DNA from: Streptomyces ortus
Lineage (GTDB): Bacteria; Actinomycetota; Actinomycetes; Streptomycetales; Streptomycetaceae
Assembly: GCF_026341275.1 (NCBI RefSeq)
Contig: NZ_JAIFZO010000002.1
Span: 5,982,118 to 6,046,117, forward strand
Direction of reading: 5' to 3'
DNA: 64,000 nt
The notes under the pieces are model-generated. The model had not been told where the DNA came from and searched no databases. It saw nothing but the letters and a program-made list of their open reading frames with translations. Of the stretch, positions 559 through 33,660 are shown piece by piece (position 1 is the first letter of the stretch; every line of letters begins with the position of its first letter). The position numbers and the translations under genes are program-made.

Positions 559-698
559 GGTGTGGTTACCCCCGATAGAACGTGTATTTCCGACCTGCGG
601 GGCAGGCGGCTGCGGGTCAGGCACCGGCGAATCGGGCACCTGTGGGTCCAGCCCTGGCCCCAGGAGAGGCCCACCCTGCCGCCGTCCGTCCCGGGCCG

Positions 699-2301: not shown

Positions 2302-3807
2302 GTGGCTGTGACGGAGTCTGCGCCCGAGACGGCGCCCGCGACCCAGGAAGCGGCGGGGGCGCGCACGATGCATGAAGCGGCGGGGGCGCACGCGGTGCAG
2401 GAGAACGCGAGGGCGCGCACGGCGCGCGACACCGCGACCGTGCACACGATGAACGAGAACGCGACGGCGCGCACGGCGCGCACGGCGCAAGAGGGCATCC
2501 TGCGGCGGCAGTCGGCGCGCGAGTCCGCGGCACGCACCTACGCGCGCGCCCTGCCGATCGTCCCCGTCCGGGCGCGCGGGCTGACCATCGAGGGCGCCGA
2601 CGGGAGCCGCTATCTCGACTGCCTCTCCGGCGCGGGCACACTGGCCCTTGGCCACAACCACCCGGTCGTCCTGGAGGCCATCCGGAAGGTCCTCGACTCG
2701 GGAGCCCCGCTGCACGTCCTGGACCTGGCCACGCCCGTCAAGGACGCCTTCACCACCGAGCTGTTCCGCACCCTGCCGCCCGGTCTCGCCGACCGCGCGC
2801 GGGTGCAGTTCTGCGGCCCCGCGGGCACGGACGCCGTGGAGGCGGCGCTGAAACTGGTGCGCACCGCGACCGGACGCAGCGGGATCCTCGCCTTCACGGG
2901 CGCCTACCACGGGATGACGGAGGGGGCGCTCGCGGCATCCGGAGGCGCTCCCGACGTACGAGTCACGCGCCTGCCCTATCCGCAGGACTACCGCTGCCCG
3001 TTCGGCGTCGGCGGCGAGCACGGGGCCGAACTCGCCGCCCGCTGGACGCAGTCCCTCCTCGACGACACGAAATCCGGGGTGCCGAACCCCGCCGGAATGA
3101 TCCTCGAACCGGTGCAGGGCGAGGGCGGGGTGATCCCGGCCCGCGACGACTGGATGCGGTGGATACGGGAGATCACCGCGGCGCGCTCCATTCCACTGAT
3201 CGCCGACGAGGTGCAGACCGGGGTCGGCCGGACCGGCACCTTCTGGGCGGTCGGGCACAGCGGCGTCACACCCGACGTGATGGTCCTGTCCAAGGCCATC
3301 GGCGGCAGCCTGCCGCTGGCCGTCGTCGTCTACCGCGACGACCTCGACGTATGGGAACCGGGCGCCCACGCCGGCACGTTCCGGGGCAACCAGCTCGCCA
3401 TGGCGGCGGGCGCCGCGACCCTCGCGTACGTCCGCGAGAACGGACTCGCCGAGCGCGCCGCCGCACTGGGCGACCGCATGATCGGCCGACTCCGCGCTCT
3501 GGAGGCCGACTTCGGCTGCGTCGGGGAGGTGCGCGGCCGGGGGCTGATGATCGGCGTCGAGTTCGTGGATCCCGAGAGGCCCTCCACGACCCCCGGCGGG
3601 CCTCCTCCCGCCGCGCCCGCGCCGGCCGCCGCCGTCCAGCGGGCGTGCCTGAGACGCGGACTGATCGTGGAACTGGGTGGCAGGGACTCCAGCGTGGTGC
3701 GTCTGCTTCCACCGCTCACGATCACGGACGAGCAGGCGACCGCGGTACTGGACCGGCTCGCGGACGCGGTGGCGGAGGTGGCGGCGGAGCCGGCGCACTC
3801 CTGGTGA
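2302..3807 (+). CDS. class III PLP aminotransferase, 2,4-diaminobutyrate transaminase-like (siderophore locus)
   Basis: Predicted 501 residues from GTG 2302, with GAGGA at 2289-2293. The start is uncertain because the reading frame extends upstream and the first 50 or so codons are low-complexity. The conserved fold begins around RTYARALPIVPVRARG, and the PLP-binding lysine is in MVLSKAIGGSLPLA (about Lys331). The sequence most resembles diaminobutyrate-2-oxoglutarate transaminases of the RhbA/DAT type, which make 2,4-diaminobutyrate from aspartate semialdehyde. It precedes three NIS siderophore genes in the same direction, so it probably supplies a diamine building block. The usual partner decarboxylase is absent here. 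A shorter start at ATG 2449 would give a more typical length. Confidence 0.85.
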   Translation: MAVTESAPETAPATQEAAGARTMHEAAGAHAVQENARARTARDTATVHTMNENATARTARTAQEGILRRQSARESAARTYARALPIVPVRARGLTIEGADGSRYLDCLSGAGTLALGHNHPVVLEAIRKVLDSGAPLHVLDLATPVKDAFTTELFRTLPPGLADRARVQFCGPAGTDAVEAALKLVRTATGRSGILAFTGAYHGMTEGALAASGGAPDVRVTRLPYPQDYRCPFGVGGEHGAELAARWTQSLLDDTKSGVPNPAGMILEPVQGEGGVIPARDDWMRWIREITAARSIPLIADEVQTGVGRTGTFWAVGHSGVTPDVMVLSKAIGGSLPLAVVVYRDDLDVWEPGAHAGTFRGNQLAMAAGAATLAYVRENGLAERAAALGDRMIGRLRALEADFGCVGEVRGRGLMIGVEFVDPERPSTTPGGPPPAAPAPAAAVQRACLRRGLIVELGGRDSSVVRLLPPLTITDEQATAVLDRLADAVAEVAAEPAHSW

Positions 3808-3873
3808 CCGCCACACGGCAGCACCGAGCAGCACCTCCCACCTCACCACCCCGAACCACTCCAAGGAACCTCT

Positions 3874-5910: not shown

Positions 5911-5963
5911 CCCACTCCGTCACATGACCCACTCCGTCTCCGTCTCCTGAGAGGAGCGTCGCC

Positions 5964-6650
5964 GTGCCTCCCCCCGACGCCAGCAGCCCGGGCAACGCGG
6001 ACACCCTCGACCTGCGTCTGCCGGACGACTTCCTCGCGCTCTTCACCAAGGACGTCCACCCCTTCACCCCCGCAGGTGAGGACCTGCTCGACCGTGTCGG
6101 TGACTGGGGGCCGACGGCCACCTCCGCGGGCGCCTTCCACCTCGTCCCCGTACGCCTCGACCGTGACCTTCCGCTGATCGGGCGCTGGATGAACGACCCC
6201 GCGGTGGCCGCCTTCTGGGAACTCTCCGGGCCCGGTACGGCGACCGAGGACCATCTGCGCGCCCAGCTCGACGGCGACGGACGCAGCGTCCCCTGTCTCG
6301 GCATGCTGAACGGCACCCCGATGAGCTACTGGGAGATCTACCGCGCCGATCTCGACCCGCTGGCCCGCCATTACCCGGCCCGCCTGCACGACACCGGTAT
6401 CCACCTCCTCATCGGCGGCGTCGCCCATCGCGGGCGGGGACTCGGCACGGTCCTCCTCCGTGCTGTCTCCGACCTCGTCCTCGACCGTCGTCCCTCCTGC
6501 GCACGCGTGGTCGCGGAGCCCGACCTTCGCAACACCCCCTCCGTGGCCGCCTTCCTGGGCGCCGGCTTCCGGTTCTCCGCCGAGGTCGAGCTGCCCGACA
6601 AGAAGGCAGCCCTCATGGTCCGAGACCGGGCCCTGCGCGCTCTGTTGTAG
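5964..6650 (+). CDS. GNAT acyltransferase, IucB/AlcB-like siderophore N-acyltransferase
   Basis: Product of 228 residues from GTG 5964, with GAGAGGAG just upstream. Family features are RWMNDPAVAAFWEL, MSYWEIYRAD, HLLIGGVAHRGRGLGTVLL (acetyl-CoA binding loop) and a C-terminal AAFLGAGFRF. This is the IucB/RhbD/AlcB type, which transfers acetyl or succinyl groups to N-hydroxylated diamines to make hydroxamates. It sits between two IucA/IucC synthetases, so its role in making the siderophore monomer is well supported by context. No N-hydroxylase gene is seen nearby, so hydroxylation must be supplied from elsewhere or the substrate is not hydroxylated. A short direct repeat of ATGACCCACTCCGTC lies just before it (5908-5940). 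Confidence 0.88.
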   Translation: MPPPDASSPGNADTLDLRLPDDFLALFTKDVHPFTPAGEDLLDRVGDWGPTATSAGAFHLVPVRLDRDLPLIGRWMNDPAVAAFWELSGPGTATEDHLRAQLDGDGRSVPCLGMLNGTPMSYWEIYRADLDPLARHYPARLHDTGIHLLIGGVAHRGRGLGTVLLRAVSDLVLDRRPSCARVVAEPDLRNTPSVAAFLGAGFRFSAEVELPDKKAALMVRDRALRALL

Positions 6651-6708
6651 ATCCGTCACTTGCAGTAACGAAACACGTCCCGATCAGGTTCCCAGTCGAG
6701 GAGTCCCT

Positions 6709-8769
6709 GTGCCGAACCCGTCCGCCGCCCCGGCTCCCGGAGAGCCCTCAGATCTCTACGACCCGCCGGAACTGAGCCAGGAGAGATGGGAGGCGGCGGG
6801 GCGCCGCCTGCTCGCGAAGATGATCGGTGAGTTCGCGCACGAGGAGATCCTGCTGCCGGAACCGGCTGCGCACCGCGGCGGCGGTACGGCGGCAGCCGGC
6901 GTTCCCATCAGAGGAGACGATTCGCCTCCCGGCACAGAGGCTCAGGGACCGCCCGCCTCGCCGCCCACCTCGCCCCCCGCCCTCAGGCCCCAGGCCGCGC
7001 CCTCCATCGAGCCCGAACCGGCCGGCCCCGCCCTCGACGGCGAACGCTCCTACACACTCCGTCTCGACGCCGGTGGCATCCTTGCTTTCCGCGCCCGCCG
7101 TGGGGCGTACGACAGCTGGCGGGTCGACCCGTCATCACTCACGCTGACCGAAGCGACCGGGACAACCGCGGCACCTGCCGCCGAACGCGCCGCCTGGACC
7201 GTACTCGCAGCCGAAGCCGAGTCCTCCCCGCACCAGCGGCCCTACACCGACCCCCTCGACTTCCTCACGCGCGCGCGTGCCGTGCTCCACCTCGACGGCG
7301 CCACCCTCGGCCACGTTATCCGAGAGCTGTCCACCACCCTCGCCGCGGACGCCCGGCTGGACCACACCGCACTCCCGGCCGCCCGCCTCGCCGATCTCGG
7401 ATACGCGGAGCTGGAGGGCCACCAGACGGGCCACCCCTGGATCGTCCTCAACAAGGGGCGGCTCGGCTTCTCCGCGACCGACGCCGCCCAGTGGGCGCCC
7501 GAGGGCCGAAGGGCCACCGTCCTGCCCTGGATCGCCGTCCACACCTCGCTCGCCACCTACCGGGGCGTCCGGGGCCTGGACAGCGCCGATCAGCTCTACG
7601 CGCGCGAGCTCGACCCGGCTGTCCGCAAGTCGTACGACACCGCACTGCGCACACGGGGGCTCACTCCGGAGTCGTACCTCTATCTGCCCGTGCATCCCTG
7701 GCAGTGGAACGACGTCGTGCTGCCGCTCTTCGCGCCCTCCGTCGCCGCCGGAGCCATCGTCCCCCTGCCCCCGGACGGCGATCTCCGTCTGCCCCAGCAG
7801 TCGATCCGTACGTTCCTGAACACCTCACGTCCGGACCGGCACACCGTGAAGCTGTCGCTGTCCGTCCTCAACACCCTTGTGTGGCGCGGGCTCCCGACGG
7901 AACGGACGCTCGCCGCCCCCGCGGTCACGGCCTGGATGCACGGGCTGCGGGACACCGATCCCTTCCTGCACGACACCTGCGGGGTGATCCTGCTGGGCGA
8001 GGTCGCGTCCGTGACGGTCGGGCACCCGGTCTACGACGCGCTGCCGGAAGTCCCGTACCAGTACAGGGAACTGCTCGGCGCGATCTGGCGCGAGCCGCTC
8101 TCCCGCCATCTCGCACCCGGCGAACGCGCCCGTACGCTCGCCGCCCTGCTGCACACCGACCCCGAGGGCCGTGCCTTCGCGGCGGAGCTCGTCGACCGCT
8201 CGGGCCTCGACCCGCGCAGCTGGCTGCGCCGCCTGTTCGCCGCGCTGCTGCCGCCCCTGCTGCACTTCCTCTACCGCTACGGCACGGTGTTCAGCCCGCA
8301 CGGCGAGAACGCGATCGTCGTCTTCGACGACCACGACGTACCCGTGCGGCTCGCGGTGAAGGACTTCGTGGACGACGTGAACGTGAGCGCCGAGCGCCTC
8401 CCCGAGCACGCCTCGATGCCCGACGACGTACGGGCGGTGCTGCTCACCGAACCGGCCGCCTTCCTCACCCAGTTCATCCACTCCGGGCTCTTCGTCGGCG
8501 TCTTCCGCTATCTGGCCCCGCTGTGCCAGGAGCAACTGGGTGTCCGTGAGGACGAGTTCTGGTCACTCGTCCGGGCGGAGATCATCCGGCACCACCAGCT
8601 CTTTCCCGAGCTCAAGGAACGCTACGAAACGTTCGACCTGCTCACTCCCCGTATCGAGCGGCTCTGCCTCAACCGCAACCGGCTGCACCTCGACGGTTAC
8701 CGGGACCGGCCGCGGCGCCCGCACGCCGCCGTGCACGGCACCGTCCCGAACCCCCTCCACCGGTCGTGA
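6709..8769 (+). CDS. IucA/IucC-family NIS siderophore synthetase (second copy)
   Basis: Product of 686 residues from GTG 6709, with GAGGAG five bases upstream; the open frame continues upstream but overlaps the acyltransferase. The first 120 residues are Pro/Ala-rich and poorly conserved. The core has LEGHQTGHPW, then YLPVHPWQWNDV, RTFLNTSRPDRHTVKLSLSV (Lys about 381) and SPHGENAIVVF (His about 531, Glu about 533). It differs clearly from the first copy, so the two are distinct subfamilies that probably catalyse successive condensations, as in aerobactin-type assembly. It ends the locus, and the next gene has its own upstream region. The final product is unknown to me. Confidence 0.93.
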   Translation: MPNPSAAPAPGEPSDLYDPPELSQERWEAAGRRLLAKMIGEFAHEEILLPEPAAHRGGGTAAAGVPIRGDDSPPGTEAQGPPASPPTSPPALRPQAAPSIEPEPAGPALDGERSYTLRLDAGGILAFRARRGAYDSWRVDPSSLTLTEATGTTAAPAAERAAWTVLAAEAESSPHQRPYTDPLDFLTRARAVLHLDGATLGHVIRELSTTLAADARLDHTALPAARLADLGYAELEGHQTGHPWIVLNKGRLGFSATDAAQWAPEGRRATVLPWIAVHTSLATYRGVRGLDSADQLYARELDPAVRKSYDTALRTRGLTPESYLYLPVHPWQWNDVVLPLFAPSVAAGAIVPLPPDGDLRLPQQSIRTFLNTSRPDRHTVKLSLSVLNTLVWRGLPTERTLAAPAVTAWMHGLRDTDPFLHDTCGVILLGEVASVTVGHPVYDALPEVPYQYRELLGAIWREPLSRHLAPGERARTLAALLHTDPEGRAFAAELVDRSGLDPRSWLRRLFAALLPPLLHFLYRYGTVFSPHGENAIVVFDDHDVPVRLAVKDFVDDVNVSAERLPEHASMPDDVRAVLLTEPAAFLTQFIHSGLFVGVFRYLAPLCQEQLGVREDEFWSLVRAEIIRHHQLFPELKERYETFDLLTPRIERLCLNRNRLHLDGYRDRPRRPHAAVHGTVPNPLHRS

Positions 8770-8852
8770 TCACCCGCGCCGCCGTGGCCCGGGTACGCGT
8801 CCTGATCACATCCCCCTCCACCGCCGCGATCACCCGGTTGTCAGTGCCGACC

Positions 8853-8858
8853 CGTAGG
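8853..8858 (+). promoter_or_regulatory. putative -10 hexamer for the DinG-type helicase
   Basis: TAGGGT lies 11 bases before the ATG at 8870, and no Shine-Dalgarno sequence is seen in between. This fits a leaderless or near-leaderless transcript. No convincing -35 at normal spacing was found. Confidence 0.35.
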
Positions 8859-8869
8859 GTGGGCTGGCT

Positions 8870-10891
8870 ATGACAGAGCCCTCACTCCCCGAACTCCTGC
8901 ACGCCGCCGTCACAGCCGTCGGCGGTACGGAGCGCCCCGGCCAGGTGACCATGGCCGAATCCGTCGCGCAGGCCATCGACGACGGTTCCCATCTGCTGGT
9001 CCAGGCGGGCACCGGCACCGGTAAGTCCCTCGGCTACCTGGTTCCCGCGCTGGCGCACGGGGAGCGGGTCGTCGTGGCGACCGCCACTCTGGCGCTCCAG
9101 CGGCAGCTCGTGGAGCGGGACCTGCCACGCACGGTGGACGCCCTGCATCCGCTGCTGCGCCGCCGCCCCGAATTCGCGATGCTCAAGGGCCGGTCGAACT
9201 ACCTGTGCCTGCACCGTCTCCACGAAGGGGCGCCGCAGGACGAGGAGGAGGGCCTCTTCGACCAGTTCGAGGCGGCGGCGCCCACCAGCAAGCTGGGCCA
9301 GGACCTGCTGCGGCTGCGGGAGTGGTCGGACGAGACCGAGACGGGGGACCGGGACAACCTCACCCCCGGTGTCTCGGACCGTGCCTGGTCACAGATCTCC
9401 GTCTCCTCCAGGGAGTGCCTCGGCGCCTCGAAGTGCGCCTACGGAGCGGAGTGTTTCGCCGAGGCGGCCCGTGAGCGCGCCAAGCTCGCCGATGTCGTCG
9501 TCACCAACCACGCCCTCCTTGCGATCGACGCCATCGAAGGCGCTCCCGTCCTCCCGCAGCACGAGGTGCTGATCGTCGACGAGGCCCATGAGCTGGTCTC
9601 CCGGGTCACCGGGGTCGCGACCGGCGAGCTCACCCCGGGCCAGGTCAACCGCGCTGTCCGCCGGGCGGCGAAACTGGTGAACGAGAAGGCGGCCGATCAG
9701 CTCCAGACGGCGGCCGAGGGCTTCGAGCGGCTGATGGAGCTGGCCCTGCCCGGCCGCCTCGAAGAGATCCCGGAAGACCTCGGGTACGCGCTGATGGCCC
9801 TGCGGGACGCCGCCCGCACGGTGATCTCGGGGATCGGGGCGACCCGCGACAAGTCCGTCACCGACGAGGACGCGGTCCGCAAGCAGGCCCTCGCCTCCGT
9901 GGAGAGCGTCCACGACGTGGCGGAGCGCATCACGAACGGCTCCGAGTGGGACGTCGTCTGGTACGAGCGGCACGACCGTTTCGGGGCTTCCCTGCGGGTC
10001 GCGCCGATGTCCGTGGCGGGCCTGCTGCGCGAGAAGCTCTTCACGGACCGCTCCGTCGTCCTGGCCTCGGCCACACTGAAGCTCGGCGGGGACTTCAACG
10101 GCGTGGGAGCCTCGCTCGGCCTGTCCCCGGAAGGCGTCCAGGGGGACGACATCCCGCTCTGGAAGGGCCTCGACGTGGGCTCGCCCTTCGACTACGGCAG
10201 ACAGGGCATCCTGTACGTCGCGAAACACCTGGCCAGACCCGCCCGGGACAGCGACCGCGGGGACATGCTCGACGAGCTCACCGAGCTGATCCAGGCGGCC
10301 GGCGGCCGTACGCTCGGCCTGTTCTCCTCCATGCGGGCCGCCCAGCTCGCCGCGGAGGAACTGCGCTCCCGCATCCCGGAGTTCCCCATTTTGTTGCAGG
10401 GCGAGGAGACGCTCGGCGAGCTGATCAAGAACTTCGCCGCGGACCCGAAGACCTGTCTGTTCGGCACGCTCTCGCTCTGGCAGGGCGTGGACGTCCCGGG
10501 CCCCAGCTGTCAGCTGGTCGTCATGGACAAGATCCCCTTCCCGCGCCCCGACGACCCGCTGATGAGCGCCCGGCAGAAGGCGGTCGAGGACGCCGGCGGG
10601 AACGGCTTCATGGCCGTCGCGGCCACGCACGCGGCCCTGCTCATGGCCCAGGGCGCCGGCCGCCTCGTACGGGCGACGGAGGACCGGGGTGTGGTGGCCG
10701 TGCTCGACCAGCGGCTCGCCACCGCGCGCTACGGCAGCTACCTCAAGGCGTCGCTGCCCGACTTCTGGTACACGACGGACCGTAACCAGGCGCGGCGGTC
10801 GCTGGCCGCCATCGACGAGAAGGCCCGCAAGGCCGAGGCGGCTCAGGAGGATGGTGCGGCTCAGGAGGCCGGGGCGGTCGAGGAGGCCTGA
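8870..10891 (+). CDS. DinG-type ATP-dependent DNA helicase (XPD-like, superfamily 2)
   Basis: Product of 673 residues. The Walker A motif GTGTGKS is at about 47-53 and the DEAH box VDEAHE at about 237. Four cysteines (one in NYLCLHR near 113, three in the ECLGASKCAYGAEC region near 183-195) match the iron-sulfur cluster position of XPD/DinG helicases. Late motifs LFSSMRAAQLAAEELR and QGAGRLVRATEDRG complete the helicase. These enzymes unwind DNA 5' to 3' and resolve R-loops or unusual structures. The neighbour downstream is lexA, convergent, with a strong shared terminator between. The C-terminal tail is rich in Ala and Glu. DinG is SOS-controlled in E. coli, but I see no clear SOS box here. 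Confidence 0.93.
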   Translation: MTEPSLPELLHAAVTAVGGTERPGQVTMAESVAQAIDDGSHLLVQAGTGTGKSLGYLVPALAHGERVVVATATLALQRQLVERDLPRTVDALHPLLRRRPEFAMLKGRSNYLCLHRLHEGAPQDEEEGLFDQFEAAAPTSKLGQDLLRLREWSDETETGDRDNLTPGVSDRAWSQISVSSRECLGASKCAYGAECFAEAARERAKLADVVVTNHALLAIDAIEGAPVLPQHEVLIVDEAHELVSRVTGVATGELTPGQVNRAVRRAAKLVNEKAADQLQTAAEGFERLMELALPGRLEEIPEDLGYALMALRDAARTVISGIGATRDKSVTDEDAVRKQALASVESVHDVAERITNGSEWDVVWYERHDRFGASLRVAPMSVAGLLREKLFTDRSVVLASATLKLGGDFNGVGASLGLSPEGVQGDDIPLWKGLDVGSPFDYGRQGILYVAKHLARPARDSDRGDMLDELTELIQAAGGRTLGLFSSMRAAQLAAEELRSRIPEFPILLQGEETLGELIKNFAADPKTCLFGTLSLWQGVDVPGPSCQLVVMDKIPFPRPDDPLMSARQKAVEDAGGNGFMAVAATHAALLMAQGAGRLVRATEDRGVVAVLDQRLATARYGSYLKASLPDFWYTTDRNQARRSLAAIDEKARKAEAAQEDGAAQEAGAVEEA

Positions 10892-10894
10892 ACG

Positions 10895-10954
10895 GTCACA
10901 GGGGCTGCTTTCTTCCGGCTCGGGTGAGAGCCGGAAGAAAGCAGCCCCTGTGAC
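10895..10954. terminator. bidirectional terminator hairpin between the helicase gene and lexA
   Basis: The 27-base arms 10895-10921 and 10928-10954 are perfectly complementary around a 6-base loop (GGGTGA). It begins four bases after the helicase stop codon. There is no U-tract, as is usual in Streptomyces. Confidence 0.92.
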
Positions 10955-11065
10955 GTGCGCAGCGGTCCGGCGCAGGGCCCCGCGGGGAAGGTGTGCGGGA
11001 AACGGGGACAGCACAGGGCCCCGGAACCGGCGCAGAGGTCCCGGGGCCCGGTCAGGGGTGGATCC

Positions 11066-11848
11066 TCAGATCCGCCGGAGCACCGCCACGACCTTCCCGA
11101 GGATGGTCGCCTCGTCACCCGGGATGGGCTGGTAGGCGGAGTTGTGCGGCAGCAGCCACACATGGCCGTCCTCGCGCTTGAAGCGCTTGACCGTCGCCTC
11201 ACCGTCCAGCATGGCGGCCACGATGTCGCCGTTCTCCGCGACCGGCTGGCGCCGGACGGTCACCCAGTCGCCGTCACAGATCGCGGCTTCGATCATCGAG
11301 TCGCCGACGACCTTCAGCACGAACAGCTCGCCGTCGCCGACCAGCTGCCGGGGCAGCGGGAAGACGTCCTCGACCGATTCTTCGGCGAGGATCGGACCAC
11401 CGGCGGCGATCCGGCCGACGAGCGGGACGTACGACGCCGCCGGCTTGCCGGCCGTGTCGGTGGGCTGCGCGGTGGACTGGTCGGATCCGCGGACCTCGTA
11501 GGCCCTGGGGCGGTGCGGATCGCGGCGCAAGAAGCCCTTGCGCTCCAGTGCCATCAGCTGATGGGCCACGGAGGAGGTGCTGGAGAGGCCGACGGCCTGC
11601 CCGATCTCCCTCATGGACGGTGGATATCCCCGCCGCTGCACGGAGTCCCTGATGACTTCGATGACGCGGCGTTGCCGGTCGGTGAGTCCGGAGCTGTCCG
11701 CCCGGATGCCTGGAGGTCGGCCCGGCAGGGAGCGGGCGGGCTTTTGCCCCTCCTGGTTCGCGGTCTCATTCATGGCTTGCACCGGCTCAAATCGGCCCTG
11801 GGAGCGGTCCTGGGCAGTGATGGTGGCACTGTCTGCGGTGGTGGTCAC
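11066..11848 (-). CDS. lexA: LexA, SOS-response repressor
   Basis: Product of 260 residues from GTG 11848, chosen for the AGAGGGG just upstream; the open frame runs 23 codons further but that stretch overlaps regulatory DNA. After a variable N-terminus of about 60 residues comes the winged helix ([20 protein letters not shown], then [19 protein letters not shown]). The self-cleavage site is Ala-Gly in GRIAAGGPI, and the catalytic dyad is Ser184 (GDSMIE) and Lys221 (ATVKRF), 37 residues apart as in the family. It represses DNA-damage genes and cleaves itself when stimulated by RecA. An SOS box about 60 bp upstream indicates autoregulation. Convergent with the helicase gene, divergent from nrdR. 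Confidence 0.97.
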
Positions 11849-11907
11849 GTCGGCCCCTCTCGTTCGTCTCCCTGCTGGACAACGGTAGTTGCTTTCGAAA
11901 GGTTGCG

Positions 11908-11923
11908 CCAAACACACGTTCGA
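11908..11923 (-). promoter_or_regulatory. SOS box (LexA operator) upstream of lexA
   Basis: Read on the minus strand the site is TCGAACGTGTGTTTGG, close to the actinobacterial LexA operator TCGAAC-N4-GTTCGA. The first half-site is perfect, the second partial. It lies 60 bp upstream of the proposed lexA start. Confidence 0.8.
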
Positions 11924-12219
11924 GTGAAAAAACGCGAATGGCCTTACGTGATCACGCGTCTGGGTGTATGGCTACCGCTGCACGGGGCGGACGAAGGTGC
12001 TCGGTGCCGCATTTTCTCGTACTCTTCGTCGCCGATGCCGAGGCCTTGTGGGTCGGAGCGGGACGAAGGCCAGTCTGCCATCAGGCGCCCCGTGGAGCGG
12101 GAACCGGCCCCCGTACCGCTGCCGCACACCGTATCCCCGTACGCTCTCCGCCGGAACGGACGCGCGGCACATGCCAATACGGGTGCGACACGCGCGTAGA
12201 GCGTGAAATTCGGGTCAGG

Positions 12220-12235
12220 CCCTACATATAGTGGT
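12220..12235 (+). promoter_or_regulatory. NrdR box upstream of nrdR-nrdJ
   Basis: CCCTACATATAGTGGT matches the core of the NrdR box (ACACTATATNTAGTGT-like) when read on the opposite strand. It is about 140 bp upstream of nrdR, as expected for autoregulation of the ribonucleotide reductase operon. NrdR boxes usually come in pairs about 31 bp apart; I could not find a clear second copy. Confidence 0.65.
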
Positions 12236-12374
12236 CCGAGTTCCTCAGTGGCCCAGAAGTTGTGGTCCCGGGTCTTCCGGGTCCTAGGTCATCGCCTATG
12301 CTGGGGGCTGCTTCGAGGGGCCCGAGGGCCTGTCGAGGCTATCGAGTCGTGCTGTGCGAGGAGGGTTGGATTCG

Positions 12375-12926
12375 ATGCACTGCCCCTTCTGCAGGCACCC
12401 CGACAGTCGTGTCGTCGACAGTCGTACGACGGACGACGGCACGTCGATCCGCAGGCGCCGCCAGTGTCCCGACTGCTCCCGTCGGTTCACGACCGTGGAG
12501 ACGTGCTCCCTCATGGTGGTGAAGCGGTCCGGAGTCACCGAGCCGTTCAGCCGTACGAAGGTCATCAACGGCGTGCGCAAGGCGTGCCAGGGGCGGCCCG
12601 TCACGGAGGACGCACTCGCTCAGCTCGGCCAGCGGGTCGAGGAGGCGGTGCGGGCCACCGGGAGTGCCGAACTGACCACCCATGACGTGGGTCTGGCCAT
12701 ACTCGGGCCGTTGCAGGAGCTCGATCTCGTCGCTTACCTGCGGTTCGCGTCCGTGTACCGGGCGTTCGACTCGCTGGAGGACTTCGAGTCCGCCATCACG
12801 GAACTCAGGGAAGAGACGCACGGCCCCGCCACGGCCGACGACGACGTGTGCGAGGGGTGCCAAGGGAACGACCGCGGGTCCGGAGAGGCTGTCGAGGTCC
12901 CCGTACCCGCGAACGCCGCCGACTGA
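12375..12926 (+). CDS. nrdR: NrdR, transcriptional repressor of ribonucleotide reductase genes
   Basis: Product of 183 residues starting MHCPFC, the invariant family start; the frame opens seven codons earlier but those are not conserved. The zinc ribbon has Cys3, Cys6, Cys31 and Cys34. The ATP-cone domain follows ([15 protein letters not shown] to about 140, with [13 protein letters not shown]). An acidic tail of about 30 residues extends beyond the usual 150-residue length. NrdR senses the dATP/ATP ratio and represses nrd operons through NrdR boxes; one such box is upstream. nrdJ follows 153 bp downstream on the same strand, the classic Streptomyces nrdRJ arrangement. Confidence 0.97.
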
Positions 12927-12975
12927 CGAGAGGGGCCGGCACCGGCCCTGCCGGTCGGCGGCGACCACATACCTG

Positions 12976-13006
12976 TTGCGAGCGGACGCGTAGGCGGTGC
13001 TCGCAA
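12976..13006 (+). other. small stem-loop in the nrdR-nrdJ spacer
   Basis: TTGCGAGC and GCTCGCAA pair across a 15-base loop. It could be a weak attenuator or a processing site between the two genes. There is no other support for a role. Confidence 0.35.
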
Positions 13007-13079
13007 TACCAGAACACAGACCGTGCCCCGGGAAGAACGAGGCACTTCAGGGCGTTTTAGCCTGATACAGGGAGGCGGC

Positions 13080-15989
<2,910 letters not shown>

Positions 15990-24676: not shown

Positions 24677-24744
24677 CAGTTCCGTTCGCACTCATGTGCC
24701 ACCCGCTTGCGCGGGTCGCACCGGCGTTTGATAAAAATCAGCTC

Positions 24745-25374
24745 ATGCCTCTCATTCCCGAGGAGCCTCAGATTCACGAGAGTGCCCAGGGTCCCCGCGT
24801 CAGTCCGGCCACCGGCCGGACCGCGCCGACCCCCCGCCCCGTACCCGGCCCCCGTCCCGCGGCACCGCCGCGTCCAGGCCGTCCGGGTCCTGTCCGGCCG
24901 ATGCCGCCTGCGCAACGCACGCCGCGCGACACGGCCGTGGCCAAGCCGGGGCCTGCCGCTCCGGCGGCCCCACCCGCAGCCTCGTCCCCGACGATCCAGC
25001 TGATCCCGGCCTCGGCCGAGGGCGCGCTGGACGCCGCCGAGGAAGCGGTCGACCTGCTCCTTGACTCGGGCAGGGCCCCCGGTGAGGTGCTGGTGGTCAC
25101 CACCGGCGAACCCCACCCGTGGGCCGCGCACGAGCTCTCCTTCGGCGAGGCCGCGTACTGGGCCCAGCACGACGCGGGAGACGACGTGTTCTACGCCGAC
25201 GCCTCCGCTGTCGGTCGTGCCGCGTCCCGGCCCGTGGTCGTTGTCGCCGTCAATGGCGGGCCCGACGCCACCGCTGCCACCGCGCTGCCGCTGGCCCTCG
25301 GCCGAGCCGGCGCCCTGCTGATCGTCTGCGGAGACCCGCAGCAGATCAACTCGGTGCTGGGCACGAGGGTCTGA
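24745..25374 (+). CDS. unknown protein with proline-rich N-terminus and a helicase-like GDPQQ motif
   Basis: Product of 209 residues from ATG 24745, which begins MPLIPEEPQIHE; an earlier ATG at 24694 is possible but less likely. Residues 25-85 are rich in Pro, Arg and Ala and probably disordered. The rest is a compact alpha/beta domain: TIQLIPASAEGALDAAEEAVDLLLDSG, VLVVTTGEPHPWAAHELS, then RPVVVVAVNGG and LLIVCGDPQQINSVLG. The last motif resembles the GDxxQ motif III of superfamily 1 helicases, but no Walker A is present, so this is not a working helicase alone. It is 68 bp after rnhB. Function unknown. Confidence 0.75.
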   Translation: MPLIPEEPQIHESAQGPRVSPATGRTAPTPRPVPGPRPAAPPRPGRPGPVRPMPPAQRTPRDTAVAKPGPAAPAAPPAASSPTIQLIPASAEGALDAAEEAVDLLLDSGRAPGEVLVVTTGEPHPWAAHELSFGEAAYWAQHDAGDDVFYADASAVGRAASRPVVVVAVNGGPDATAATALPLALGRAGALLIVCGDPQQINSVLGTRV

Positions 25375-25592: not shown

Positions 25593-26219
25593 TCAGCGCG
25601 CGGCCGCGCGGCGCAGGACCTCCGAAGCGGATCCACCGGTGCGCGGCTGTATGGACTCGGCCGCCGCGAGCGACTCCAGGGACTCCGGCGGTGAGTCCGC
25701 GTTGGGCCGACGGCCGCCGCGTCCCTCACCGAGTACCTGCCAGCCGTCACGCGTCAGCGTGATGTACGCCCCGCAGCGCAGCCCGTGCAACGTGCAGGCG
25801 TCGCGCAGCCCCCACATCCAGGCCCCGTCCTCCTCCGTCCACCGGGCGTCGCCGTCACGGCAGTAGAGCAGCACGGCGGTACGCACCGGGGTGCGGCGCC
25901 GCAGGTCGTGCGGGATGACCCGGCGCAACTGCGCGAGCAGCGCGTTGCGGAACATCCAGCCGTCCGCCGGAGCCGGCCGCCTGACGAAGGACGCGCTCGC
26001 GCTCAGCCGCTCGTCGGGATCGAGCACCGCCAGGATCGCGGTCGTGGGGCCGGGCCGATGTCGGGAGTGCAGCCCGCTGACGACCTCCCGGGGATCACGC
26101 AGTAGCGGAATCCCCGCAGCGGCCCATTCGGCGGGTTCGAGCATCCGGGTCAGTGGGTGGGCGGAAGTGGCGGCCGTCGACATCGATGCCGCCGAGGACG
26201 GAGCGAATCCGAAGGTCAC
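25593..26219 (-). CDS. conserved protein of unknown function downstream of recQ-like gene
   Basis: Product of 208 residues if it starts at GTG 26219 (GGGAGG only three bases away, spacing short); ATG 26183 would give 196. No known catalytic motif is visible. The protein is soluble and has LTRMLEPAEWAAAGIPLLRDPREVVSGLHSRH with a cluster of basic residues, then TTAILAVLDPDERLSASASF, a middle MFRNALLAQLRRVIPHDLRRR, and a Trp-rich EEDGAWMWGLRDACTLHGLRCGAYITLT. A role with the helicase upstream is possible but not shown. The gap of 221 bp to recQ leaves room for a separate promoter (a TATAAG hexamer is present near 26410). Confidence 0.7.
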   Translation of the reverse strand: MTFGFAPSSAASMSTAATSAHPLTRMLEPAEWAAAGIPLLRDPREVVSGLHSRHRPGPTTAILAVLDPDERLSASASFVRRPAPADGWMFRNALLAQLRRVIPHDLRRRTPVRTAVLLYCRDGDARWTEEDGAWMWGLRDACTLHGLRCGAYITLTRDGWQVLGEGRGGRRPNADSPPESLESLAAAESIQPRTGGSASEVLRRAAAR

Positions 26220-26440
26220 GGTCCTCCCTTCGGCTACGCGCCCACACAGCGGGCGAGGTCGGACTGGGGGAGCGCGCCGCGGCACAGCCCGAACGGGCGG
26301 CCTCAGGAGGCCACGCGGGGCGCGAGGCCAATTCTTCCTGTCGAACTTGGTTGCGGCAACGAGCAATTGGGGCCACCGACCGTTATCTGGTGATCCGCTG
26401 CTTATATCCCTGCTCGGTATTTACCACCGCACCGCAGGAA

Positions 26441-28603
26441 TCAACCTTGCACAGCGAGTACCAGCGGCAACACCCCCTGAGCGCCGGCCCGCCGCAGCAT
26501 GCGCGCGGCCACCGCGAGCGTCCAGCCGGTGTCGGTCGAGTCGTCCACGAGCAGGACGGTCCCATCGGCTCCGGCGAGCGCCTCGGCCAGCGGAGGCGGC
26601 ACCACCAGCGCGCCGTCCAAAGCCTTGAGCCGCTGTGCGCTGTTGCTCCTGGAGACCTGTGCGGCGTCGGCTCCCGGGGCGTACTCGATGGAACCCAGCA
26701 GAGGCAGGCGGCCGACCTCGGCGATCCGCGCGCCCAGCGACCGGACGAGGTGCGGCCGGCGCTGCGACGCCATGGTGACGACGCCGACCGGGCGCGCCAC
26801 GGCGCCGGAACCGCCCGAGGCCCAACCGCCCGGTCCCTTGGCCCAGTCGGCCAGGACGCCGACCACGGCCTGCGCCACATCGTCCGGGACAGGTCCGTCC
26901 GGGGCCTGGGGGCCGAGCAGCGGTCGCAGTCGGTTCCCCCAGCCGATGTCCGAAAGCCTCCCCAGCGCCCGTCCGGTGGCGGCCTGCTCCCCGGCCGGGA
27001 TGCGTCCCTTCAGGTCGACGCCCACGGCGGGCAGGCCCGTGGGCCACATCTTCCTGGGGTCCACCTCGATACCCGCGCGGCCGAGCTCGCCACGTGCCGA
27101 GTCCAGTGCGGACGAGGACACGGCGTCGGTGAACCGCGGCTTCGTGCAGGTGTCACAGCGGCCGCACGGGGCGGCCCCCTCGTCGTCCAGCTGCCGGCGC
27201 AGGAACTCCATCCGGCAGCCCGTCGTCGTCACGTAGTCACGCATGGCCTGCTGCTCGGCCGCGCGCTGCTTGGCCACCCACGCGTAGCGCTCGGTGTCGT
27301 ACGTCCAGGGGGTGCCCGTGGAGATCCAGCCGCCCTTGACGCGCTTCACGGCGCCGTCCACGTCCAGGACCTTGAGCATCGTTTCGAGCCGTGACCGGCG
27401 CAGCTCCACCAGCGGTTCGAGCGCGGGGAGCGACAGCGGGCGGCCCGCCTGGCCGAGAACATCCAGGGTGCGCCTGACCTGCTCCTCCGGAGGGAAGGCG
27501 ATCGATGCGAAGTACTGCCAGATCGCCTGGTCCTCCTTGCCGGGCAGGAGCAGCACCTCGGCGTGCTCGACCCCACGGCCCGCACGGCCCACCTGCTGGT
27601 AGTAGGCGATGGGTGAGGACGGCGAACCCAGGTGCACCACGAAGCCGAGGTCGGGCTTGTCGAAGCCCATGCCCAGCGCCGAGGTGGCGACAAGGGCCTT
27701 GACGCGGTTGGCGAGCAGGTCCTCCTCGGCCTGCTGGCGCTCCGCGTTCTCCGTCTTCCCCGTGTACGAGGCCACGGTGTGCCCGGCCTGCCGGAGGAAG
27801 GCGGTGACCTCCTCGGCGGCGGCCACGGTGAGCGTGTAGATGATCCCGGAGCCCGGCAGATCGACCAGGTGCTCGGCGAGCCAGGCCATCCGGTGGGCGG
27901 CGTCCGGCAACTGCAGCACGTTCAGGCTCAGGCTCTCGCGGTCCAGCGGGCCCCGCAGGACGAGGGCGTCGGTGCTTCCGCCGGTGCCCAGTTGCTCGGC
28001 GACGTCGGCGGTCACACGCGCGTTGGCCGTGGCAGTGGTCGCGAGGACCGGGACGCCCGCGGGAAGGTCGGCGAGCATCGTGCGCAGGCGGCGGTAGTCC
28101 GGCCGGAAGTCGTGGCCCCAGTCGGAGATGCAGTGCGCCTCGTCCACCACGAGGAGACCTGTCGCAGCCGCCAGTCTGGGCAGCACCTGGTCCCGGAAGT
28201 CCGGGTTGTTGAGCCGCTCCGGGCTCACCAGCAGGACGTCGACCTCACCCTCGGCGACCTCGTCCTGGATCGTGTCCCACTCCTCCGAATTGGACGAGTT
28301 GATGGTCCGCGCCCGGATGCCGGCGCGGGCGGCTGCCTCGACCTGGTTGCGCATGAGCGCGAGGAGCGGGGAGACGATCACGGTGGGACCGGCCCCTTGC
28401 CCGCGCAGCAGCGCGGTCGCGACGAAGTACACGGCCGACTTGCCCCAGCCGGTGCGCTGTACGACCAGGGCCCTGCGCTTGTCGGCCGCGAGGGCCTCGA
28501 TGGCGCGCCACTGGTCCTCGCGCAGCCGGGCGTCGCCTCCCGGCGCGCCGACGAGGCGGGCGAGGACGGTGTCGGCCGCTGTGCGCAGCTCTTCGTTGCT
28601 CAT
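26441..28603 (-). CDS. RecQ-family DNA helicase fused to a phosphoribosyltransferase-like domain
   Basis: Product of 720 residues from ATG 28603. The helicase core has [34 protein letters not shown] (Walker A), [22 protein letters not shown] (DEAH box II), TTATANARV (III) and [15 protein letters not shown] (VI). A zinc-binding cysteine set follows (CRMEFLRRQ to CGRCDTC). The last 170 residues are not an HRDC domain. They resemble a type I phosphoribosyltransferase: [41 protein letters not shown], and the PRPP-binding loop [13 protein letters not shown] near residue 690. RecQ unwinds DNA 3' to 5' in repair. The role of the PRT domain is unknown. It is divergent from the DUF4192 gene. Confidence 0.93.
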
Positions 28604-28735: not shown

Positions 28736-30400
28736 ATGACGAATTACAGCGAACCGGCCGAGAACCCCGCCGACGGTGACACCGGCCGATGCGACGAGAC
28801 CGCCGCGCAGAACGGCACGGACAGGCAGGACAGCCAGAGCCAGCAGAGCAATCACAGCCACCAGAGCAGGCAGAGCGGGTGGGAGGGCCACGACGGGACG
28901 ACCTCTGCCGGTGCGGCACACACCGCGGTCGGCGGTTCACCTGGCGCGACCGGCAGCCTGTGTCCGAACCACCAGGTCACCCTCCGCACACCGGCCGAAC
29001 TGGCCGACGCCCTGCCGTACCTGCTCGGATACCGGCCCGAGGACAGCATCGTGCTCGTCGCCCTGCACGACAGGGACGGGCGTGGCCGTTTCGGCGGACG
29101 GGCCCGACTCGGCATCCCGAGCCACGCGGACGACTGGCCGTCCGTGGCGCAGCAGCTGACGCACGGCCTGGTGAAGGGCAGCGAGCGAAGGGGGGCCCTG
29201 CCCGAGAGCATGGTCGCCTTCCTCTGTCACGAACCCGGGAAAGGGGAGTCGGGCCGGGCGGTCATGGAACGGCTGCGTCCGCTCGCCCAGCTGCTGCGCA
29301 CGGCCTGCGGAGCACTCGACGTCCCGGTGATCGAGGCGCTGTGCATCTCGGACGGCCGCTTCTGGTCGTACTGCTGCCCCAGCGAGCACTGCTGTCCGCC
29401 GGACGGTACGTCCATGGGGCTGCCGGGCACGTCCGTGCTGGCGGCGGCTGCCACCTACGCCGGGCTGCAGGTGCGGGGCACCCTGCGGCAGTTGCGGGCG
29501 AGGCTCACGCCCTGGGAGAGCAAGGCGGCGCTGGAGCAGGAATCCGCGCTGGACGCGGTGAGCATGGCGCTGATTCCCCGGATTCTGGACGACGAGAGTC
29601 GCTCCGGGGTGGCGGCCGGCACCTTGGAGCTGGCCCGACAGGTCATGCGCCGGTTCGCCGACACCACCTCCGCAGCTCCGGGGCCCGGCACACTGCCGGC
29701 GGACCTCCGGGACGACGAGCTACTGCGTCACGAGGAGGCGGCCACGTTGATCCTCGGGCTGCAGGACCGCACCACCCGGGACCGGGCGGCAGTGTGGATG
29801 GAGGGGGACGAGGCCGGACCTGCCCTGCGTCTCTGGAGGGCCCTGGCACGCCGCTGCGTCGGATCGTACGGGGAGCACGCGGCGGCGCCCCTCACGCTCG
29901 CCGGGTGGGTCGCCTGGTCCTCGGGCGACGAGCTGGAGGCGCGCGAGGCCCTGGCCATGGCACTCGGAGCGGATTCCGGATACCTCTTCGCCCGGCTGCT
30001 CCACCAGGCGTGCAACGAGGGTCTGGACCCGGAGACGATCCGCCGCTGTCTGCGGGGGGAGCGCGCCGAGCATGCCGACGGTGAGGTGCTTGCCTCGTCG
30101 GCGGCGTGTGTGGGGCCGTCGGGCGCCGATGGGCTGCCCGGAGAGGTTCCGGCGGGGCCCGCCAAGGGCTCCGCCCGTCGCCGACGCAGGTCGCGCGCCG
30201 CGGAGGGCGTGGTCGACCGGCCTGGTTCCCGACCGGCCGGTACGGGTGGCACACGCCGTCCTCGCGCCGCTCCTTCCGGTTCGGCGTCCCATGCGCAGGG
30301 AGGTCCGGGCCGCGATGGCGACGGCACTCCTGGTGCGACTCGCTCTCGCCGCACCGGGCGGTCCGGAACGCCGAAGAGTGAGTCGAAGGGCGAGGCGTGA
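28736..30400 (+). CDS. DUF4192 domain protein
   Basis: Product of 554 residues from ATG 28736. The first 80 residues are polar and low in complexity (many Gln, Asn, Ser, His). The DUF4192 domain begins at VTLRTPAELADALPYLLGYRPEDSIVLVALHD and continues through GLVKGSERRGALPESMVAFLCH to the region RFADTTS (about 310). A second part holds WMEGDEAGPALRLWRALARR and APLTLAGWVAWSSGDELEAREALAMALGAD, followed by a basic, Pro/Gly-rich tail. The family is widespread in actinobacteria, with no known function; the tail and position beside recQ suggest a nucleic-acid link, but that is inference. Confidence 0.88.
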   Translation: MTNYSEPAENPADGDTGRCDETAAQNGTDRQDSQSQQSNHSHQSRQSGWEGHDGTTSAGAAHTAVGGSPGATGSLCPNHQVTLRTPAELADALPYLLGYRPEDSIVLVALHDRDGRGRFGGRARLGIPSHADDWPSVAQQLTHGLVKGSERRGALPESMVAFLCHEPGKGESGRAVMERLRPLAQLLRTACGALDVPVIEALCISDGRFWSYCCPSEHCCPPDGTSMGLPGTSVLAAAATYAGLQVRGTLRQLRARLTPWESKAALEQESALDAVSMALIPRILDDESRSGVAAGTLELARQVMRRFADTTSAAPGPGTLPADLRDDELLRHEEAATLILGLQDRTTRDRAAVWMEGDEAGPALRLWRALARRCVGSYGEHAAAPLTLAGWVAWSSGDELEAREALAMALGADSGYLFARLLHQACNEGLDPETIRRCLRGERAEHADGEVLASSAACVGPSGADGLPGEVPAGPAKGSARRRRRSRAAEGVVDRPGSRPAGTGGTRRPRAAPSGSASHAQGGPGRDGDGTPGATRSRRTGRSGTPKSESKGEA

Positions 30401-32901: not shown

Positions 32902-33660
32902 ATGCCCTACGACCCGTCAGCTTTCGCGCCGTTCGCCGTCACCGTCGACCTGGTCGTGCTGACCGTGCGTCGTCACGCGCTGTGCGCGCTGGCGATCCGC
33001 AGGGGCGAGCCGCCCTTCCAGGGGCGGTGGGCACTGCCCGGTGGGTTCGTGCGGCCCGACGAAGACCTGTCGCAGGCCGCGGCCCGGGAGCTGCGGGAGG
33101 AGACCGGGCTGTGCGCACACTCCCCGGACGCTCCCGTGCAGGCGAACGGGGCTCACCTGGAGCAGCTCGCGACCTACGGCGACCCCAAGCGTGACCCGCG
33201 CATGAGGGTCGTCAGCGTCGCCCATCTCGCTCTCGCGCCCGACCTGCCCGCGCCCAGAGCCGGCGGAGACGCGAACAGCGCGCGCTGGGCTCCCGTCGAG
33301 GACCTGCTTCAGCAGGGCGGCTACGGACGTGACGGGGAGCAGGCCGCGCCCCTCGCCTTCGATCACGCCCAGATCCTGTCGGACGGCGTGGAGCGTGCCC
33401 GTTCCAAGATCGAGTACTCGTCGCTGGCCACGGCCTTCTGCCCGCCCGAGTTCACGGTCGGAGAGCTGCGCCGCGTGTACGAGGCGGTGTGGGGGGTGGC
33501 GCTCGACCCGCGCAACTTCCACCGCAAGGTGACCGGTACGCCGGGTTTCCTCGTCCCCACGGGCGGGACCACGACCCGGCAGGGCGGCCGTCCCGCCCAG
33601 CTCTTCCGGGCGGGCGGCGCCACCCTGCTCAACCCGCCGATGCTCCGCCCCGAAGTCTGA
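32902..33660 (+). CDS. Nudix-domain protein with winged helix, NrtR-like regulator or hydrolase
   Basis: Product of 252 residues. The Nudix box GGFVRPDEDLSQAAARELREETGL (47-70) fits GX5EX7REUXEEXGU. The C-terminal third (YSSLATAFCPPEFTVGELRRVYEAVWG to KVTGTPGFLVP) matches the winged helix of NrtR regulators. NrtR proteins usually repress NAD-synthesis or sugar genes and bind ADP-ribose in the Nudix fold; in many the Nudix box is inactive, but here the glutamates are intact. An inverted repeat over the promoter hints at autoregulation. No NAD gene is adjacent, so its targets are unclear. Confidence 0.86.
   Translation: MPYDPSAFAPFAVTVDLVVLTVRRHALCALAIRRGEPPFQGRWALPGGFVRPDEDLSQAAARELREETGLCAHSPDAPVQANGAHLEQLATYGDPKRDPRMRVVSVAHLALAPDLPAPRAGGDANSARWAPVEDLLQQGGYGRDGEQAAPLAFDHAQILSDGVERARSKIEYSSLATAFCPPEFTVGELRRVYEAVWGVALDPRNFHRKVTGTPGFLVPTGGTTTRQGGRPAQLFRAGGATLLNPPMLRPEV

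What the first reader, a model, noticed from the sequence alone, without database searches (positions are those of the whole stretch)
26441..28603. RecQ helicase carrying a phosphoribosyltransferase domain
The C-terminal 170 residues show the PRPP loop [13 protein letters not shown] in place of HRDC. A helicase that could bind PRPP or nucleotides suggests a link between nucleotide status and repair, or an unrecognised nucleic-acid modification.
Basis: partly seen in the sequence, partly recalled or inferred. Interest (0 to 1): 0.6.

Follow-up and report, generated by a model that had tools for sequence, protein, structure and literature searches.

The report
Streptomyces RqlH helicase, no partner antitoxin
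The gene encodes a known kind of DNA-unwinding enzyme with a sugar-phosphate (PRPP)-binding type of domain at its end; relatives of it act as toxins kept in check by a partner protein, but this soil bacterium keeps the enzyme without that partner.

Summary
[quoted passage not shown] It is not a new fusion. This is RqlH, reported from M. smegmatis in 2012 and E. coli in 2015; PADLOC calls it PsyrT. The 2015 paper already lists Streptomyces as carrying RqlH alone. The domain groups with ComF/ComFC by profile and predicted fold.

What I add: 226 of 345 class genomes carry RqlH, 1 of 345 the partner PsyrA/RqlI. Residue 691 is acidic in 11 of 11 partnered proteins but 30 of 54 called partnerless. 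The canonical PRPP loop without 691 does not differ significantly, so this is a post hoc lead; the 2015 authors saw no major allele differences.

Most likely function: a housekeeping 3'-5' DNA helicase whose ComFC-like domain binds PRPP or nucleotides. Ligand and reaction are untested.

The parts
26441..28603 (-). RqlH/PsyrT-family helicase gene, 720 aa
   Evidence: ORF and translation; PADLOC PsyrT 715.8 bits over residues 9-718
28010..28519 (-). RecA-like domain 1 (DEAD; residues 29-198; Walker K55, DEAH 154-157)
   Evidence: Pfam DEAD E 7.6e-23; K55 in 64 of 65 and D154, E155, H157 in 65 of 65 aligned proteins
27575..27865 (-). RecA-like domain 2 (Helicase_C; residues 247-343; Q336, R340, R343)
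   Evidence: Pfam Helicase_C E 9.3e-18; the three residues 65 of 65
27320..27487 (-). helix-helix-helix-strand-strand segment, residues 373-428, winged-helix-like by inference
   Evidence: DSSP of the model; no Pfam match there; the winged-helix reading is inference
27143..27268 (-). RecQ-type tetracysteine zinc-binding region (residues 446-487; C463, C480, C483, C486)
   Evidence: Pfam RecQ_Zn_bind 24.3 bits against cut-off 25; all four Cys in 44 of 44 of the window's clade and 62 of 65 overall
26444..27106 (-). C-terminal ComFC-like region modelled apart (residues 500-720)
   Evidence: AlphaFold2 model pLDDT 90.2; VIA-align to ComFC 7p0h Z 13.0; hhalign to ComF 98.9%
26621..26659 (-). ComF-like Q..NS..Q/R..N segment (residues 649-661); the window keeps Q649, N654, S655 but has R658 and A661
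   Evidence: alignment; counts
26519..26557 (-). PRPP loop [13 protein letters not shown] (residues 683-695)
   Evidence: translation; conservation

Best explanation
It is the Streptomyces RqlH orthologue: a RecQ-like, ATP-driven 3'-5' DNA translocase/helicase in which HRDC is replaced by a ComFC-like PRTase domain. Most likely it is a chromosomal, vertically inherited repair helicase. The PRTase domain binds PRPP or a nucleotide and thereby couples or gates how the motor handles single-stranded DNA, in the way the ComFA helicase, the PRTase ComFC and DprA work together on ssDNA in transformation (recalled). The partner that restrains this domain in E. coli (RqlI/PsyrA, DprA-like) was not found here, so it should not act as that toxin-antitoxin pair. 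Shown here: domain content, ComF relationship, predicted fold, no partner found, conservation. Established elsewhere for relatives: helicase activity, PRTase-dependent toxicity without RqlI, PRPP/AMP binding by ComFC. Inferred: that this domain binds PRPP and that binding regulates the motor.
For: Full-length match to PsyrT/RqlH; 40% identity to an E. coli RqlH, whose K49 and D148 fall at the catalytic positions named for strain F11 RqlH. ComF profile match 98.9% against HPRT 41% and APRT 32% for the whole set; nearest solved fold in the VIA list ComFC. RqlH in 226 of 345 class genomes, one match each at E 1e-120 with up to three candidates scored per genome; of the listed genomes of the genus (own included) 32 have it and 1 does not, 99 rows without a match being unlisted. 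PsyrA in 1 of 345. In the own genome the only PsyrA match is a DprA core, 79.7 bits, about 194 kb away, and that stretch matches Pfam DprA. Stable place in its family: rnhB within the held flank in 57 of 62 named loci of at least 20 kb. Purifying selection on the PRTase part, median dN/dS 0.31, against 0.11 for RecA1.
Against: No experiment on this protein. PRPP binding is inferred from a loop and a predicted fold; Pfam scores the domain below its cut-off and Foldseek E-values are weak. The PRTase part evolves fastest of the five segments measured, and the ComF segment residues Q658 and N661 are not kept in the window. Some relatives called partnerless have degenerate loops (Tsukamurella L040, L161, L141), so ligand binding need not be essential to the family. 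In M. smegmatis the PRTase domain is dispensable for ATPase and helicase activity (cited in PMC4670107), against tight gating. Repair is inferred from the family and from stable inheritance; no repair phenotype is known to me for Streptomyces. The gene was not compared directly with MSMEG_5935.
Confidence: 0.58

Rival explanations
1. Anti-phage effector without its own antitoxin: the Streptomyces protein is a PsyrT toxin held off by its own helicase domain or another host factor and released by phage or DNA damage.
For: PADLOC names it PsyrT. Partnered relatives sit in defence operons: between hsdS and hsdR on an E. coli plasmid and inside BREX in Acinetobacter. In E. coli, helicase-dead RqlH lowered viable counts and raised the SOS response, read by the authors as the helicase helping to restrain the PRTase (PMC4670107 passages). 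The related ShosT structure entry is titled as a phage-defence toxin-antitoxin.
Against: Widespread in its class and syntenic in its family, unlike the sporadic E. coli pair (53 of 5426 genomes hold this allele); no PsyrA found. Ten neighbouring proteins between 19639 and 35587 gave no convincing PADLOC match: only the NUDIX protein (24 bits, to a candidate model) and the ABC transporter protein (53 and 33 bits, to MADS models, over part of those models).
Confidence: 0.14
2. Active enzyme: the PRTase transfers phosphoribose to, or removes a base from, DNA or nucleobases, with the helicase exposing the substrate (close to the model of Russell and Mulvey).
For: In E. coli, changes in the putative PRPP pocket remove the effects on growth, SOS and filamentation, with a modest effect on viable counts left. 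Residue 691, which by recall matches the catalytic Asp of HPRT, is acidic in 11 of 11 partnered and 71 of 71 Streptomycetaceae proteins.
Against: No modified base or product is reported in the passages read. [quoted passage not shown] Residue 691 is not acidic in 24 of 54 proteins called partnerless. For ComFC, the closest family, the authors could not conclude on transferase activity.
Confidence: 0.13
3. Non-catalytic scaffold: the PRTase fold no longer uses PRPP and only binds ssDNA or a protein.
For: Faster evolution of the PRTase part; degenerate loops in several relatives called partnerless; Q658 kept in 20 and N661 in 25 of those 54; ComFC T165A, which abolishes nucleotide binding, still binds ssDNA.
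Against: In the window's own family the loop positions D687, D688, G693, W694 and T695 are each 71 of 71 and 692 is always S or T, which fits retained phosphate binding.
Confidence: 0.15

Closest known systems
RqlH of Mycolicibacterium smegmatis (Ordonez, Unciuleac and Shuman 2012; paper not held; known from citing passages and the reference list, otherwise recalled)
   Same: RecQ-like motor, zinc domain, no HRDC, ComF-like PRTase at the C-terminus; no partner mentioned in the passages read
   Different: not compared directly; the window protein is from Streptomyces and I know of no activity measured on it
RqlH-RqlI of E. coli F11 / PsyrTA (Russell and Mulvey 2015, passages; PADLOC PsyrT/PsyrA)
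   Same: full-length homology, 40% identity to an E. coli RqlH, same domain order
   Different: no RqlI/PsyrA found next door or elsewhere in the genome; chromosomal and widespread in its class rather than sporadic
ComFC/ComF (H. pylori structure 7p0h; PMC9005727 passages) and the genome's own ComF-like ORF (L051)
   Same: ComF profile and fold, PRPP loop, Q..R..N segment in part
   Different: fused to a RecQ helicase; W694 in the loop; D or E at 691 where H. pylori ComFC has T (loop as quoted)
ShosT (8zvb, 8zvc, 8zvd; entry titles only)
   Same: PRTase fold, PRPP named in 8zvc; a DprA homologue as antitoxin per a PMC9122126 passage
   Different: I know its architecture from no call; no membership claimed

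Membership tests
RqlH | RecQ-like ATPase domain | tested here: met
   NCBIfam recQ_fam above cut-off (229.7 against 219.8 bits) and Pfam helicase domains; Foldseek to RecQ E 1.8e-29
RqlH | tetracysteine zinc domain | tested here: met
   C463, C480, C483, C486; Pfam just below cut-off
RqlH | no HRDC domain | tested here: met
   none listed; found in own RecQ as control
RqlH | C-terminal ComF-like PRTase domain | tested here: met
   hhalign 98.9%; ComFC top of the VIA list, Z 13.0
RqlH | 3'-5' translocase and helicase activity | not testable with these tools
   needs purified protein
RqlH | direct homology to MSMEG_5935 | not tested
   sequence not fetched by name; only an E. coli RqlH compared
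PsyrTA / RqlHI toxin-antitoxin system | PsyrT/RqlH toxin protein | tested here: met
   PDLC03928, 715.8 bits, residues 9-718
PsyrTA / RqlHI toxin-antitoxin system | adjacent PsyrA/RqlI antitoxin | tested here: not met
   only a DprA-core match at 79.7 bits about 194 kb away; no match within 1.5 kb of the gene (L001)
PsyrTA / RqlHI toxin-antitoxin system | toxicity when expressed alone | not testable with these tools
   needs expression assay
ComF/ComFC PRTase (domain only) | PRPP loop with acidic pair and S/T..T | tested here: met
   DDSTDTGWT
ComF/ComFC PRTase (domain only) | ComF profile match better than to HPRT and APRT | tested here: met
   98.9% against 41% and 32% (whole set)
ComF/ComFC PRTase (domain only) | Q..R..N segment before the loop | tested here: inconclusive
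   Q649 present, R658 in place of Q and A661 in place of N in the RqlH alignment
ComF/ComFC PRTase (domain only) | PRPP or nucleotide binding | not testable with these tools
   needs binding assay
canonical RecQ | RQC and HRDC domains | tested here: not met
   neither found; the genome's other RecQ has both

The most novel reading that the evidence does not exclude
Partnerless RqlH is a domesticated toxin: after loss of (or before gain of) the DprA-like antitoxin, the acidic residue at position 691 is free to vary while phosphate/PRPP-binding residues mostly stay, so the domain has turned from a genotoxic PRTase into a PRPP/nucleotide sensor on a repair helicase. The strict loop (D687, D688, D691, S/T692, S/T695) is complete in 11 of 11 partnered rows of the tree and in 23 of 54 rows called partnerless, or 21 of 50 once four rows that end at a contig edge are set aside. 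Three partnered proteins left out of the tree as split or partial also keep D-D..D-S/T..T. A correlated-evolution likelihood test gives p 0.0016 for the strict loop and 0.0055 with D or E at 691, but 0.35 for the canonical loop without 691. Against it for this gene: all 71 aligned Streptomycetaceae proteins keep D or E at 691.
Probability: 0.2. Interest if true: 0.55.

Novelty: already known. Interest (0 to 1): 0.3.

Why it matters
What the PRTase domain of RqlH does was called unclear in 2015, and why so many bacteria carry a potentially genotoxic helicase without the antitoxin was left unexplained there. Those authors considered less toxic alleles but saw no major sequence differences. The window's gene is a clean representative of the partnerless form, and residue 691 is a concrete, testable candidate for such a difference. 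If PRPP gates a repair helicase, it would tie nucleotide supply to DNA repair in antibiotic-producing bacteria.

Tried and rejected
Rejected: a new fusion (known family); sequencing or annotation artefact (no internal stop in the matched stretches of the window's gene and 70 other Streptomycetaceae sequences); HPRT- or APRT-type salvage enzyme (weak profile matches); toxin-antitoxin pair at this locus. The downstream co-directional gene 25593-26366 as a fixed operon partner: rejected, since in L099 RqlH is inverted while that gene is not. DUF4192 as a functional partner: it is near in Streptomyces, Kitasatospora and Actinacidiphila loci, but in four loci outside that family whose hits I printed (L122, L125, L128, L130) no probe but RqlH hit, so it looks like shared position only.

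Led nowhere: scan of viral contigs with E. coli PsyrA (nothing confirmed); phage records with E. coli RqlH (26 records, none covering 80%); paper searches for ShosTA (word-start hits on unrelated words among the 20 listed; none by whole word together with phosphoribosyltransferase). A structure search with the full-length model lists only RecQ-type helicases in the 50 rows shown, so the C-terminal part was modelled alone. The VIA list is a second look at Foldseek's hits, so families absent from it are not excluded.

Limits of the partner/loop comparison. The residue set was chosen after seeing the alignment. Rows are related. The partnered sample is 11 rows (14 with the three left out). Four rows called partnerless (L134, L141, L152, L158) have under 400 bases held 3' of the match because the contig ends there, so a partner may be cut off; without them the strict loop is 21 of 50 (Fisher 0.0004) and an acidic 691 is 28 of 50 (Fisher 0.005). 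The tree and the likelihood test were not rerun without them. The root is a midpoint and several rates in the test sit at bounds. With a loop that leaves out residue 691 the contrast is 11 of 11 against 39 of 54, Fisher 0.055, likelihood test p 0.35; for Q649 with N661 it is 11 of 11 against 24 of 54, likelihood test p 0.28. By lineage the strict loop is 10 of 10 against 11 of 22, Fisher 0.006, where two of the ten are near copies (S. meliloti and a viral contig).

Full report
What is there. The finding's coordinates hold one gene, on the minus strand: ATG at 28603, stop ending at 26441, 720 aa. I take the long plus-strand ORFs over it as G+C shadow frames and did not test them. Pfam sees DEAD, Helicase_C, a zinc-binding stretch just under its cut-off and a phosphoribosyltransferase stretch under its cut-off; no RQC or HRDC is listed. 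The genome's other RecQ (L002, 699 aa) has RQC, zinc domain and HRDC, each above cut-off, so the window gene is a second, different RecQ-type helicase.

Is the PRTase domain real? Yes. A profile of the C-terminal region of 65 family members matches a ComF profile of 25 sequences (of 26 loci given) with probability 98.9%, E 4e-17 over 141 columns; HPRT (30 of 30 loci) gives 41% and APRT (24 of 25 loci) 32%. By subset, ComF is 98.7 and 98.6%, HPRT 50 and 24%, APRT 12 and 34% for partnered and partnerless rows. The helicase segment of the same proteins gives 0.2-0.3% against all three. The Actinobacterial ComF loci themselves lie below NCBI's comF cut-off (0 of 31 genomes above it). A model of residues 500-720 (30-row alignment, mean pLDDT 90.2) is closest to ComFC 7p0h, Z 13.0, rmsd 4.2 over 173 residues, then ShosT 8zvc and 8zvd, Z 10.8 and 10.0; the other rows shown, mostly APRT, HPRT-type, PurF and PurR chains, lie at 8.6-9.9. 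Foldseek alone ranks an APRT first with E 5.9e-4 and ComFC fourth. The full-length model (pLDDT 84.7) matches RecQ, E 1.8e-29.

It is a known family. E. coli F11 RqlH is described as a RecQ-family helicase with a PRTase domain, 41.2% identical to M. smegmatis RqlH MSMEG_5935; expressed alone it is genotoxic, the toxicity needs the PRTase domain, and RqlI binds and restrains it (PMC4670107, passages). PADLOC's PsyrT model matches the window protein from residue 9 to 718 with 715.8 bits, and the DprA-like neighbours in E. coli and Acinetobacter match PsyrA. The same paper reports that Streptomyces encode RqlH without RqlI, and that 99.6% of Gram-positives in its set have RqlH alone. The 2012 M. 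smegmatis paper is not held; I know it from citations and recall.

Distribution. In 296 genomes of the phylum, full-length RqlH stands at 56 places in 55 genomes, plus three split or partial places (my count from the rows listed). Strong PsyrA matches (170 bits or more) stand at 9 places in 8 genomes, each beside a full or partial RqlH; the next best match is 130.7 bits. A draw of 396, overlapping the first, gives the same 8 genomes at E 1e-42. In the class, 226 of 345 genomes have RqlH at E 1e-120 and 1 of 345 has PsyrA at E 1e-42, in a genome listed without RqlH at that threshold. Of the listed genomes of the genus 32 have RqlH and 1 does not. Nearest named relatives are Streptomyces (up to 88%). 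By contrast the E. coli pair occurs in 53 of 5426 complete genomes at 99% identity or more; diverged alleles would be missed.

Context elsewhere. The E. coli plasmid NZ_OX030731 carries hsdM-hsdS-RqlH-DprA-hsdR by annotation; the Acinetobacter plasmid NZ_CP090068 carries the pair between pglX and a DUF262 gene of BREX; Nostoc pNPM3 has the pair; S. meliloti has an RqlH followed by a PsyrA-like frame absent from the listed annotation, 50.6% identical to one of my three PsyrA queries. The Halanaeroarchaeum, Tsukamurella and Arthrobacter loci show no PsyrA within 6 kb. The Streptomyces gene lies in a chromosomal block that is stable within its family, and ten neighbouring proteins gave no convincing PADLOC match.

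Tree and active site. A tree of 65 proteins separates 44 called partnerless, the window's included, from 21 that hold all 11 partnered ones, on a branch with 100/99 support. Left out: the three split or partial partnered proteins (L143-L145), a partial RqlH (L148), two partial viral hits (L135, L136) and L137, which gave no hit in that script. Counts, partnered against called partnerless: D687 11/11 and 51/54; D688 11/11 and 41/54; D691 11/11 and 28/54 (30/54 with E); S/T692 11/11 and 54/54; W694 11/11 and 54/54; S/T695 11/11 and 52/54; Q658 11/11 and 20/54; N661 11/11 and 25/54. Helicase identity is higher in the 44 (mean pairwise 0.65, partnered 0.60) while PRTase identity is lower (0.44 against 0.52). 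The three left-out partnered proteins keep D-D..D-S/T..T; one has A for W694. The likelihood test of correlated change favours dependence for loops that include residue 691 (p 0.0016 strict, 0.0055 with D or E) but not for the canonical loop without it (p 0.35), nor for Q649 with N661 (p 0.28). Four rows called partnerless end at contig edges; setting them aside leaves 21 of 50 strict loops. So the honest statement is narrow: residue 691 tracks partnership, PRPP-binding positions do not clearly do so. From recall, 691 aligns with the catalytic Asp of HPRT. The published F11 mutant D663A is in this acidic segment; from the 698-aa length of F11 RqlH and the place of DIVD in the 710-aa plasmid protein it is more likely residue 688 than 691, but the numbering is not settled.

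Within the window's own family the picture is different: in 71 Streptomycetaceae proteins D687 and D688 are invariant, 691 is D in 41 and E in 30, G693, W694 and T695 are invariant, and the PRTase part evolves under constraint (median dN/dS 0.311; RecA1 0.107, RecA2 0.125). The phylum sample contains one genome of the genus with A at 691 (L013). So the window's domain should still be able to bind PRPP, and the domestication reading applies less well to Streptomyces than to other partnerless lineages.

How it most likely works. By analogy with ComFA-ComFC-DprA (recalled) and with ComFC itself, which binds PRPP, AMP and ssDNA, I read the protein as a 3'-5' ssDNA motor carrying a PRPP/nucleotide-binding ssDNA-handling module. 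Motor activity is established for the M. smegmatis relative (cited) and inferred here. Ligand binding and gating are inferred. Verdict: an already described family member, with one modest lead. Papers: PMC4670107, PMC5512222, PMC9122126, PMC9005727 and PMC8790059 were seen as passages only.

Noticed in passing
window 32902-33660 (+): NUDIX protein with an NrtR-type winged helix, a class of regulator linked to NAD metabolism (recalled); found in 54 of 62 named loci.
   Followed up: partly
window 28736-30400 (+): DUF4192 gene divergent to RqlH (266 bits); in 42 of 54 named loci with both it is divergent, in 12 in the same direction.
   Followed up: partly
window 25593-26366 (-) and 24694-25374 (+): Two conserved proteins without any Pfam match, found in 57 and 56 of 62 named loci.
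   Followed up: no
window 27320-27487 (-), residues 373-428: Predicted helix-helix-helix-strand-strand unit between RecA2 and the zinc region, winged-helix-like, whereas the genome's canonical RecQ has its RQC after the zinc domain.
   Followed up: no
L035 (E. coli plasmid NZ_OX030731) 2688-12767; L039 (Acinetobacter NZ_CP090068) 1-14076: RqlH-DprA pair set inside a type I restriction operon and inside a BREX operon.
   Followed up: partly
L037 (S. meliloti) 5944-8019; viral contig loci L133, L134: RqlH proteins without the four zinc-binding cysteines but with an intact PRPP loop; the only 3 of 65 rows so.
   Followed up: partly
L040 (Tsukamurella plasmid), L161, L141: RqlH called partnerless with clearly degenerate PRPP loops; L141 ends near a contig edge.
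   Followed up: no
L146 and L147 (G045 contig 10): Two RqlH-PsyrA pairs about 21 kb apart in one genome.
   Followed up: no
L170 (G324 contig 46): The only strong PsyrA in 345 class genomes, in a genome listed without RqlH at E 1e-120.
   Followed up: no
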